Origin: Thermoleophilum album
Lineage (GTDB): Bacteria; Actinomycetota; Thermoleophilia; Solirubrobacterales; Thermoleophilaceae
Length of the DNA stretch: 64,000 nucleotides
Reading direction: 5' to 3'
Assembly (NCBI RefSeq): GCF_900108055.1
Contig: NZ_FNWJ01000002.1
Span: 444,382-508,381, forward strand
A model generated the notes under the pieces. That model did not search any database. It was not told the origin of the DNA and saw only the letters and a list, made by a program, of their open reading frames with translations. The position numbers and the translations under genes are program-made. Each line of letters begins with the position of its first letter. The stretch's first letter is position 1. Of this stretch, positions 27,266 to 64,000 are shown piece by piece.

Positions 27266-28066
27266 CTAGCGCAGGAGCGCCAGGACTGCTTGCCCCGCCT
27301 GATTGGCCTGCGCCAGCATCGCGACACCGGACTGCTGGAGCACCTGGTACTTGGCCAGGGTGACGGCCTCCTGAGCCATATCGACGTCGCGGATCCGGCT
27401 CTCGGCGGAGACCAGGTTCTCCTGGTACGTCGAGAGGTCGTTGAGCGTGTACTCGAGCCGGTTCTGAACCGCCCCGAACTTGGCTCGCTCGGAGCTGACG
27501 GCGTCGATCGCCGCGTCGATCTGCGCCAGGTCGTTGGTTTCGCCCAGCACGAAGACGCTGGCGGTGACGATGCTGCCAAGGCTGACGGTCGCCACCGAGA
27601 TCGTCTGGCCGTCGTTCGGGCCGACCTGGAAGGTGACCGTGCTCGCGGTGCTCAGCAGCTTGATGCCGTTGAACTCGGAGCTCTGGCCGATGCGCTCGAT
27701 CTCCGACGCGAGCTGGTTGACCTCGGACTGGATCGCCGCCCGGTTGGTGGCCGACAGCGTTCCGTTCTGGTACTGGACCGCCAGCTCACGGACCCGCTGG
27801 AGCATCGAGTGCACCTGGGAGAGCGAGCCTTCGGCCGTCTGCACCATCGAGACGGCGTCCTGGACGTTGCGCTGCGCCTGTCCGAGGCCGCCGATCTGGC
27901 CGCGCATCTTCTCGCTGATCGCGAGGCCCGCCGCGTCGTCGGCGGCGCGGTTGATGCGGAAGCCCGAAGACAGCCGCTCCATCGACTTCGAGAGCTTCCA
28001 GCTCGTGTTCTGGAGGTAACGCTGGGCGGTAAACGCCTCGACGTTGTTCTGGATCCGAAGGGACAT
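27266..28066 (-). CDS. fliC: Flagellin
   Basis: A 266-residue flagellin, the filament subunit. The N-terminal D0/D1 region has SWKLSKSMERLSSGFRIN and ADDAAGLAISEKMRGQI; the C-terminal region has ESRIRDVDMAQEAVTLAKY and ends QAGQAVLALLR. Only about 60 residues of variable centre remain, so the filament surface is small (D0/D1 with a minimal outer domain). The ATG at 28064-28066 has AAGGAGG 5 bases upstream. The gene has its own sigma-28-like promoter and a hairpin leader. Two glycosyltransferase genes in the locus suggest that it is glycosylated. Confidence 0.97.
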   Translation of the reverse strand: MSLRIQNNVEAFTAQRYLQNTSWKLSKSMERLSSGFRINRAADDAAGLAISEKMRGQIGGLGQAQRNVQDAVSMVQTAEGSLSQVHSMLQRVRELAVQYQNGTLSATNRAAIQSEVNQLASEIERIGQSSEFNGIKLLSTASTVTFQVGPNDGQTISVATVSLGSIVTASVFVLGETNDLAQIDAAIDAVSSERAKFGAVQNRLEYTLNDLSTYQENLVSAESRIRDVDMAQEAVTLAKYQVLQQSGVAMLAQANQAGQAVLALLR

Positions 28067-28067
28067 C

Positions 28068-28108
28068 CATGCCTCCTTGGTTCGTCCCTGGGCGACTCCC
28101 TGTCGCCC
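28068..28108 (-). promoter_or_regulatory. fliC leader hairpin with GGA loop plus GGA in the Shine-Dalgarno (candidate CsrA sites)
   Basis: The fliC leader contains a perfect 7-base-pair stem, GGGCGAC (28108-28102) with GTCGCCC (28096-28090), and a five-base loop AGGGA. The Shine-Dalgarno AAGGAGG, about 15 bases further on, contains a second ANGGA. A GGA exposed in a hairpin loop together with one in the ribosome-binding site is the pattern by which CsrA represses Bacillus flagellin. No csrA or fliW lies in the window; they often follow flgL, which would lie just to the right. Confidence 0.5.
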
Positions 28109-28120
28109 GCTTCGGCCCGG

Positions 28121-28147
28121 TAATCGCCGGCCCCCTCGGCAACTTGA
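28121..28147 (-). promoter_or_regulatory. Sigma-28-like promoter of fliC
   Basis: Minus strand: CCCTCAAGTT (TCAA at 28147-28144), 15-base spacer, GGCGATTA (28128-28121), then CCGGG. The E. coli/Bacillus flagellin consensus is TAAA-N15-GCCGATAA. The predicted leader of about 50 bases contains the candidate CsrA hairpin. Confidence 0.75.
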
Positions 28148-28172: not shown

Positions 28173-29369
28173 CTAGCCGTCGCCGTGGTTGCGGGCGATC
28201 GTGAACGGACGCAGCACGACGCCCGGGTGCTTGCGCTCGAAGTGCGCGCGATCGAGCTCACGGCGCGCGCGCACCCAAGCCGACAGCTCAGGATCGTCGC
28301 TCTCGACCGTCTCCGAAAGGCCGTGACGCACGCGCGCAGCCGGCACCAAGCGGGGCGGGCGCCCGCACGCCGCAAGCCGCAACAGCAGGTCAGTGTCTTG
28401 GTACCAAACCCGAAGTTCGGGATCGAAGAACTCGCCCGGGGCGACCGCGAGCTCCTCCACGGTCGCTCGCTTGAGCGCGAAACACCAGGCTGCGAAGTCA
28501 GCGCGGCGGAAGCCGCCAACGGTGTCCGGAAAAACCACCGTCGCGCCGTTGTCCAGCGCCTCGCGCAGCGGTGGCCACCAACCTGGCAAGGGCTCGACAT
28601 CGTCGTTGATCATGACCACGTACTGGCCGCGCGCGGCGCGCAGCCCAGCGTTTACCGGCGCGCTGAAGCCCTGCGCGGGCGCGCCGTTGTCGACCACCAC
28701 GATCTCGTGCGGCTGCTCGAGCGTGCGCTGCACGGCGCGCAGGCAGCGCTGGGCACGCTCGCTGGCTGCATCGAGCGTTGGGATCACCACACTCAGCTCG
28801 GGCTCGCCACCCACCGCCGCCCGCAGCAGTGAGCGCGGTGCCGGGAAGCTCGCCGCGCGCGCGTCGGCGACCGCCACCCGCCCCTTCGCCGCGACCCGCA
28901 ACAAGAGCTCGGCGATCACCAGGTCGTCGTCGACCTCGAAGGCGCTCGCTAGGGCCGCGTAGGTGGCCGCATCGAGGGCCACTGCCGGTGAGTCCGCGAG
29001 CGTCGAGCGCGCACCCGGGGGCACGGCCGCGAGCACCGTGTCCTCGTCGAGCGGCGCGAGCAGCGCTGCGAGCCAGCTGGGACCGAACACGATCGGTCGA
29101 GCGACGAGGACGACCTTTCGGCCACGTGCGCGCTCACCGGCACTCGCGAGCGCCGCGGCCGCACCGAGGTGGCGGCCCGTGCGCAGGACCGTGACATCGC
29201 CGTCGAGCGCCGCCAGTAACGGCTCGAGGCGTGGCGCCGAATCGGCGATCAAGACGACCTCGTGGCGCGGCTGCGCCGACAGCGCGGCTAGCGACTCGCA
29301 GAAGGCGCGCGCAGCAGCCGGCTCGTCCCCGAGGTAGGCGACAACCGTGACCCCCTGCGCAGCGCTCAT
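28173..29369 (-). CDS. Family 2 glycosyltransferase with two GT-A-like modules
   Basis: A 398-residue protein. Residues about 1-190 look like a degenerate GT-A module (VVLIADSAP, GRKVVLVARPI). Residues about 200-390 are a proper GT2 module: ELSVVIPTLDAASERAQRCL, EIVVVDNGAP, the metal-binding NDDVEPLPGWW, and YQDTDLLLRLAACG. As the last gene of the main flagellar run and the neighbour of fliC, it most likely glycosylates flagellin or makes its glycan; this is inference from context. The ATG overlaps the preceding stop (ATGA). Confidence 0.8.
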   Translation of the reverse strand: MSAAQGVTVVAYLGDEPAAARAFCESLAALSAQPRHEVVLIADSAPRLEPLLAALDGDVTVLRTGRHLGAAAALASAGERARGRKVVLVARPIVFGPSWLAALLAPLDEDTVLAAVPPGARSTLADSPAVALDAATYAALASAFEVDDDLVIAELLLRVAAKGRVAVADARAASFPAPRSLLRAAVGGEPELSVVIPTLDAASERAQRCLRAVQRTLEQPHEIVVVDNGAPAQGFSAPVNAGLRAARGQYVVMINDDVEPLPGWWPPLREALDNGATVVFPDTVGGFRRADFAAWCFALKRATVEELAVAPGEFFDPELRVWYQDTDLLLRLAACGRPPRLVPAARVRHGLSETVESDDPELSAWVRARRELDRAHFERKHPGVVLRPFTIARNHGDG

Positions 29370-63799: not shown

Positions 63800-64000
63800 A
63801 TGCCGACGATCTCCACCTTCCTCGGACTGCAAACAGCCCTGCGCGGCCTGCTGGCGCACCAGCGCGCGTTGGACGTGACCTCGCACAACGTCAGCAACGC
63901 CAACGCTGCCGGCTACACCCGCCAGGAGGCGGTACTCGGCGCTTCGCTGCCGTTGGAGCTGATGCCGGTGCAAACGCAGACGTTCGGTGGCGCGCAGCTC
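63800..64000 (+). CDS. flgK: Hook-filament junction protein FlgK, N-terminal part (cut by window edge)
   Basis: The first 67 codons, from the ATG at 63800-63802. The translation has TISTFLGLQTALRGLLAHQR and LDVTSHNVSNANAAGYTRQEAVL, the FlgK N-terminal signature. It follows flgN by 3 bases. The rest lies to the right; flgL, and possibly fliW and csrA, would be expected after it. Confidence 0.92.
   Translation, partial: MPTISTFLGLQTALRGLLAHQRALDVTSHNVSNANAAGYTRQEAVLGASLPLELMPVQTQTFGGAQL

What the first reader, a model, noticed from the sequence alone, without database searches (positions are those of the whole stretch)
28068..28108. Flagellin leader carries a GGA-loop hairpin plus a GGA in the Shine-Dalgarno: CsrA-type control predicted
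A perfect seven-base-pair stem exposes the loop AGGGA, and AAGGAGG close to the start codon holds a second ANGGA. This two-site layout is how CsrA blocks translation of Bacillus hag, with FliW releasing it. The window stops in flgK, before the place where fliW-csrA often lies. CsrA control of flagellin has rarely been discussed for Actinobacteria.
Basis: partly seen in the sequence, partly recalled or inferred. Interest (0 to 1): 0.7.

Follow-up and report, generated by a model that had tools for sequence, protein, structure and literature searches.

The report
CsrA-type double-hairpin switch on flagellin mRNA

Summary
Upstream of a flagellin gene (minus strand, start codon window 28066) lie a 7-bp hairpin with loop AGGGA and an AAGGAGG Shine-Dalgarno (SD). 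The genome belongs to Thermoleophilia (same genus as Bacterium HR41).

Leaders from relatives show more than was claimed. Hairpin H1 covaries strongly while its loop CANGGA is nearly invariant. In most relatives the SD itself sits in the loop of a second, covarying hairpin (H3). The linker after H1 pairs with the start codon and codons 2-3 (helix H2), and this pairing follows codon changes. A covariance model finds only this site in the genome. FliW and flagellin co-occur almost one to one in 299 Thermoleophilia genomes. GGA hairpins also precede flagellins in other FliW-bearing Actinomycetota.

Best reading: CsrA represses flagellin translation by binding both sites, and FliW relieves it, as for B. 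subtilis hag and especially C. jejuni flaA. It is a new member of a known kind, with a start-codon helix as a possible variant. Binding itself was not tested.

The parts
28121..28147 (-). sigma28-type promoter: -35 TCAAG (28147-28143), 15 nt, -10 GGCGAT(TA) (28128-28121); predicted RNA start about 28112-28116, so a 5' UTR of about 48 nt
   Evidence: T[CA]AAG-N15/16-[GC]CGA[TA]: 63 matches in a set of 150 leader sequences, spacing 15 (50 cases) or 16 (11 cases); RNA start inferred
28090..28108 (-). H1: GGGCGAC-AGGGA-GTCGCCC, upstream CsrA-type hairpin (loop 28101-28097)
   Evidence: pairing probability 1.0; covariation in 67 leaders; swap test
28084..28089 (-). H2, 5' strand AGGGAC, pairs with GUCCCU at 28064-28059 (holds a further GGA)
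   Evidence: pair probabilities 0.55-1.0; complementarity follows codon 2 across relatives
28072..28078 (-). Shine-Dalgarno AAGGAGG holding the second ANGGA; in most relatives in the loop of hairpin H3, in this species only CC-AAGGA-GG (28080-28072) inside H2
   Evidence: single-sequence fold places it inside the H2 hairpin
28059..28066 (-). start codon AUG (28066-28064) and codons 2-3; GUCCCU is the H2 3' strand
27266..28066 (-). flagellin gene fliC1 (266 aa, P0001)
   Evidence: NCBIfam flagellin families; 85% identical copies in the same genus
63800..64000 (+). start of flgK, the window's part of flgK-flgL-fliW-csrA-fliC2; the rest lies beyond the window (fliW contig C2:510446-510883, csrA 510907-511164, fliC2 511189-512001)

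Best explanation
The flagellin leader is a CsrA-repressed translation switch of the FliW-CsrA-flagellin checkpoint. A sigma28-type promoter makes an RNA whose roughly 48-nt leader is little more than the switch: H1 presents ANGGA in a loop; the SD (AAGGA) is presented in a second small hairpin (H3), or in this species inside the H2 hairpin; helix H2 ties the linker after H1 to the start codon. A CsrA dimer bound to both GGA sites covers the SD and holds the initiation region closed. When the hook is finished and flagellin is exported, freed FliW binds CsrA and translation starts. Shown: the RNA elements, their conservation and covariation, the fliW-csrA operon, and FliW-flagellin co-occurrence. 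Inferred: CsrA binding, repression, release by FliW, and the role of H2.
For: H1: 9 of 9 pairs show two-sided changes in 67 leaders, covariation score 0.385 against 0.173 shuffled (0/500), slid controls at most 0.13. Swap tests: own 3' arms give H1 stems of 7.0 bp against 4.1 with swapped arms, and H3 4.1 against 2.4 (0/2000 each). Loop and flank CANGGAG about 90% conserved or more while stems vary. Both sites fit the C. jejuni in-vivo site (C/A)A(A/U)GGA in loops in their GGA core (PMC6692469). A model that did not include this leader scores it 54 bits; the next best site in the genome has 15.5 bits. fliW-csrA lie next to flgL. FliW in 59 and flagellin in 57 of 299 Thermoleophilia genomes, 55 shared, Fisher p about 1e-52; by my count from the place lists, 43 of 59 fliW genes lie directly beside csrA. 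FliW matches the FliW chain of the solved FliW-CsrA complex 5dmb (E 5e-18). CsrA2 keeps R6, R44, E46 and other residues needed for C. jejuni CsrA to bind flaA RNA (by inspection; list in PMC6692469). One 97%-complete genome with flagellin but no FliW (G050) has a flagellin leader without H1 (L020).
Against: No binding, footprint or expression data. In this species H3 itself is weak (2 bp; probability near 0 in the fold), so the second site relies on H2. CsrA2 falls just below NCBIfam's equivalog cut-off (68.3 against 73 bits), though far above Pfam's. A second csrA without fliW linkage exists, so which CsrA acts is unknown. Shared ancestry inflates shuffle tests.
Confidence: 0.85

Rival explanations
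1. The hairpins are a protein-independent translation-control structure (occluding the SD and start codon, for example opened by heat or by the ribosome), and GGA is in the loops only because the SD is purine-rich.
For: H2 pairs with the start codon and covaries with codon 2; the leader folds very stably (about -27 to -30 kcal/mol).
Against: H1 is upstream of the SD, yet its loop CANGGAG is nearly invariant while its stem changes; a mere blocker would not need the loop sequence. FliW-CsrA co-occurs with flagellin.
Confidence: 0.1
2. H1 is a 5'-end stabiliser of a very abundant mRNA and has nothing to do with CsrA.
For: H1 begins only a few bases after the predicted RNA start, as 5' stabilising hairpins do.
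Against: Loop sequence conservation, the coupled SD hairpin, the unique match in the genome and absence of H1 in the FliW-less G050.
Confidence: 0.04
3. A chance hairpin in a GC-rich genome.
For: About 11 perfect 7-bp GGA-loop hairpins exist in the 64 kb window anyway.
Against: Conservation with compensatory changes across a class; 0 of 62 control starts with such an H1.
Confidence: 0.01

Closest known systems
Campylobacter jejuni flaA leader (CsrA-FliW), PMC4894983
   Same: Short 5' UTR (45 nt) with two stem-loops, each with ANGGA in the loop, the second covering the ribosome-binding site; sigma28 promoter; compensatory changes among relatives; fliW in the genome.
   Different: Other phylum and unrelated stem sequences; here a third helix pairs the linker with the start codon and codons 2-3; here fliW-csrA lie beside flgK-flgL.
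Bacillus subtilis hag leader with CsrA/FliW/Hag partner switching (review PMC7652899)
   Same: Two CsrA sites, one on the SD; FliW as antagonist; flagellin homeostasis.
   Different: Experimentally shown there, only inferred here; a start-codon helix is not described in the texts that I could read.
Clostridioides difficile fliC leader (PMC11898703)
   Same: Two predicted CsrA-site hairpins, at -45 to -34 and at the SD, nearly the same positions as H1 and H3.
   Different: There only the SD site is needed for control; here both hairpins covary, which suggests that both matter.
flg-Rhizobiales RNA motif (Rfam, from memory)
   Same: A conserved RNA upstream of flagellin genes.
   Different: No Rfam family matches the window leader; among 14 other leaders only two sub-threshold matches, one of them to the CsrA-binding sRNA RsmY.

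Membership tests
FliW-CsrA-flagellin checkpoint leader (hag/flaA type) | csrA and fliW in the same genome | tested here: met
   csrA (76 and 82.6 bits) and fliW (95.2 bits); fliW and csrA adjacent
FliW-CsrA-flagellin checkpoint leader (hag/flaA type) | Upstream ANGGA in a hairpin loop in the flagellin 5' UTR | tested here: met
FliW-CsrA-flagellin checkpoint leader (hag/flaA type) | Second GGA site overlapping the SD | tested here: met
   AAGGAGG 28078-28072; SD in a hairpin loop in most relatives
FliW-CsrA-flagellin checkpoint leader (hag/flaA type) | SD presented in a hairpin loop, as in C. jejuni SL2 | tested here: inconclusive
   Clear in most relatives; in this species only 2 bp, the SD lying inside the larger H2 hairpin
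FliW-CsrA-flagellin checkpoint leader (hag/flaA type) | CsrA binds the leader and blocks translation | not testable with these tools
   Needs gel shift, footprint, reporter
FliW-CsrA-flagellin checkpoint leader (hag/flaA type) | FliW binds flagellin and CsrA alternately | not testable with these tools
   Only homology to FliW of the solved complex 5dmb
CsrA protein family (PF02599) | Over Pfam cut-off, RNA-contact residues kept | tested here: met
   76 bits against 27; M1, L2, R6, I18, I34, A36, I42, R44, E46 identical to the C. jejuni set (sequence; list)
Known Rfam RNA families | Match above gathering score | tested here: not met
   none

The most novel reading that the evidence does not exclude
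The leader is a three-helix variant of the CsrA switch, ancestral to flagellated Actinomycetota, in which a start-codon helix (H2) that co-evolves with codons 1-3 works together with CsrA: CsrA bound at both loops stabilises H2 and so closes the SD and the start codon at once, which couples the coding sequence of flagellin to its own repression.
Probability: 0.35. Interest if true: 0.6.

Novelty: new member of a known kind. Interest (0 to 1): 0.5.

Why it matters
It extends the flagellin checkpoint, shown experimentally in Bacillus and Campylobacter, to Actinomycetota with RNA-level evidence, and gives precise base-pair predictions to test. A mechanism kept in Firmicutes, Campylobacterota and Actinomycetota would fit the idea that flagellin control is an old task of CsrA. 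The start-codon helix, if functional, is an added device.

Tried and rejected
Rfam search of the leader: no family. Weak covariance-model hits elsewhere in the phylum (E about 1e-3) lie in unrelated sequence, two of them inside a methionine-aminopeptidase-like and a trigger-factor-like reading frame, and are taken as chance. The phylum search with the model used stricter filters and missed leaders already known from other calls, so its low count (8 of 396) is not used as evidence of absence. MAFFT misaligns the H3 3' arm because loop length varies (5-7), so H3 was judged by the swap test; alignment A2 was selected for H3 pairing and its H3 counts are not used as proof. No structure prediction was run: the protein families are known.

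Full report
Observation. On the minus strand the flagellin leader reads ...GCGGGCGACAGGGAGTCGCCCAGGGACGAACCAAGGAGGCATGGATGTCCCTTCGG.... The 7-bp hairpin with loop AGGGA lies at 28108-28090 and the SD AAGGAGG at 28078-28072. The protein starts at the second ATG (28066; MSLRIQNN...), four bases downstream of the first. The single leader by itself would be a weak find: 11 perfect 7-bp GGA-loop hairpins occur in the window.

Organism and neighbourhood. The closest named relative is Bacterium HR41; next come Thermoleophilaceae, Conexibacter, Patulibacter and Solirubrobacter records, so class Thermoleophilia of the Actinomycetota. The genome (2.2 Mb, 95.6% complete) has two csrA genes and one fliW. 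One csrA lies in flgK-flgL-fliW-csrA-fliC2; flgK starts at window 63800, fliW is at C2:510446-510883, csrA at 510907-511164 and fliC2 at 511189-512001. The other csrA (C1:378590-378739) stands alone.

Comparative evidence. Flagellin leaders were taken from near relatives, 51 loci of genome contigs and further genomes of the class. H1 recurs with different stems around a nearly constant CANGGAG. On 67 aligned leaders, chosen only as flagellins not next to csrA and not near-identical, all 9 pairs show two-sided changes; covariation score 0.385 against 0.173 in shuffles (0 of 500) and at most 0.13 with slid partners. Swapping 3' arms between leaders drops the mean H1 stem from 7.0 to 4.1 bp (0 of 2000).

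Second hairpin. In most relatives the SD AAGGA is itself in a loop with covarying stems: TCATC/GATGA, GATC/GATC, CGTC/GACG, TCGAC/GTCGA, TCAAC/GTTGA, TTCC/GGAA, CTTC/GAAG, GATTC/GAATC, ACACC/GGTGT. Swap test: 4.1 against 2.4 bp (0 of 2000). In the window species this stem is only CC/GG.

Third helix. The linker right after H1 is complementary to the start region. AUGUCCC genes carry GGGAC; AUGGCCC genes often GGGC or GGCC; Solirubrobacter AUGGGCC genes GCCC(A); an AUGAGCC gene AAGGC. Mean best Watson-Crick run 4.66 against 3.93 after swapping start regions, maximum 4.27 in 1000. The number of independent changes is small and relatedness is not fully removed, so H2 is supported but less firmly than H1 and H3. 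In the window leader H2 has pair probabilities of 0.55-1.0 in a single-sequence fold.

Specificity. A covariance model built from 23 leaders, the window's not among them, finds the window leader at 54 bits and nothing else above 15.5 bits in the genome. Of 62 control start-like sites none has an H1-like hairpin; of 66 flagellin leaders 53 do. Flagellin copies that directly follow csrA mostly lack H1 but often keep a small SD hairpin.

Genome-level association. In 299 Thermoleophilia genomes flagellin is found in 57, FliW in 59, both in 55 (Fisher p about 1e-52, not corrected for relatedness). CsrA is found in 118, so csrA also has another life without flagella. G050 (97% complete) has flagellin but no FliW, and its leader has no H1 (one case). 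In the wider phylum FliW is in 58 of 396 genomes, and many of their flagellin leaders show a GGA-loop hairpin near -50, e.g. ATGTAGC(AAGGAT)GCTACAT, CGGGGAGCC(ACGGAT)GGCTCCCCG, GGTCGC(AGGAT)GCGACC; this wider set was read by eye, not tested statistically.

Promoter. T[CA]AAG-N15/16-[GC]CGA[TA] precedes many leaders (63 matches in 150 sequences), a sigma28-type promoter. In the window it predicts a 5' UTR of about 48 nt, beginning a few bases before H1.

Comparison with known systems. The C. jejuni flaA leader is the nearest: 45 nt, two stem-loops, both with ANGGA loops, the second on the ribosome-binding site, compensatory changes among species, CsrA binding with Kd about 50 nM (PMC4894983). 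B. subtilis hag has two CsrA sites, one on the SD (PMC7652899). C. difficile fliC has two predicted hairpins at nearly the same positions (PMC11898703). [quoted passage not shown] A survey of actinobacterial flagella searched for CsrA and FliW but its text mentions each only once (PMC10746217). I found no paper in the held library that describes these leaders.

Verdict. Mechanism shown in part (structure, conservation, gene context), inferred in part (binding, repression, FliW release). New member of a known kind; H2 is the element that could make it a variant.

Noticed in passing
L001 (G000:C1:378590-378739, minus): A second csrA, unlinked to fliW. CsrA occurs in 118 of 299 Thermoleophilia genomes but FliW in only 59, so many flagellum-less genomes keep a csrA of unknown target.
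   Followed up: partly
L057, L058, L153 (upstream of flagellin genes): In Solirubrobacter the sigma28-like -35 and -10 boxes lie inside an inverted repeat such as AAGATCGGCCCCTCGGGGCCGATCTTTTT, which also looks like an intrinsic terminator for the preceding flagellin copy.
   Followed up: no
L157, L160: Leaders with three tandem GGA-loop hairpins (two upstream plus the SD hairpin) in one family of the class.
   Followed up: no
window 28173-29369 (minus): Family 2 glycosyltransferase gene directly upstream of the flagellin gene; possible flagellin glycosylation.
   Followed up: no
window 28064-28070: AUGGAUG: an out-of-frame AUG overlaps the flagellin start in this species but not in its nearest relatives (GTAGCAATG).
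   Followed up: partly
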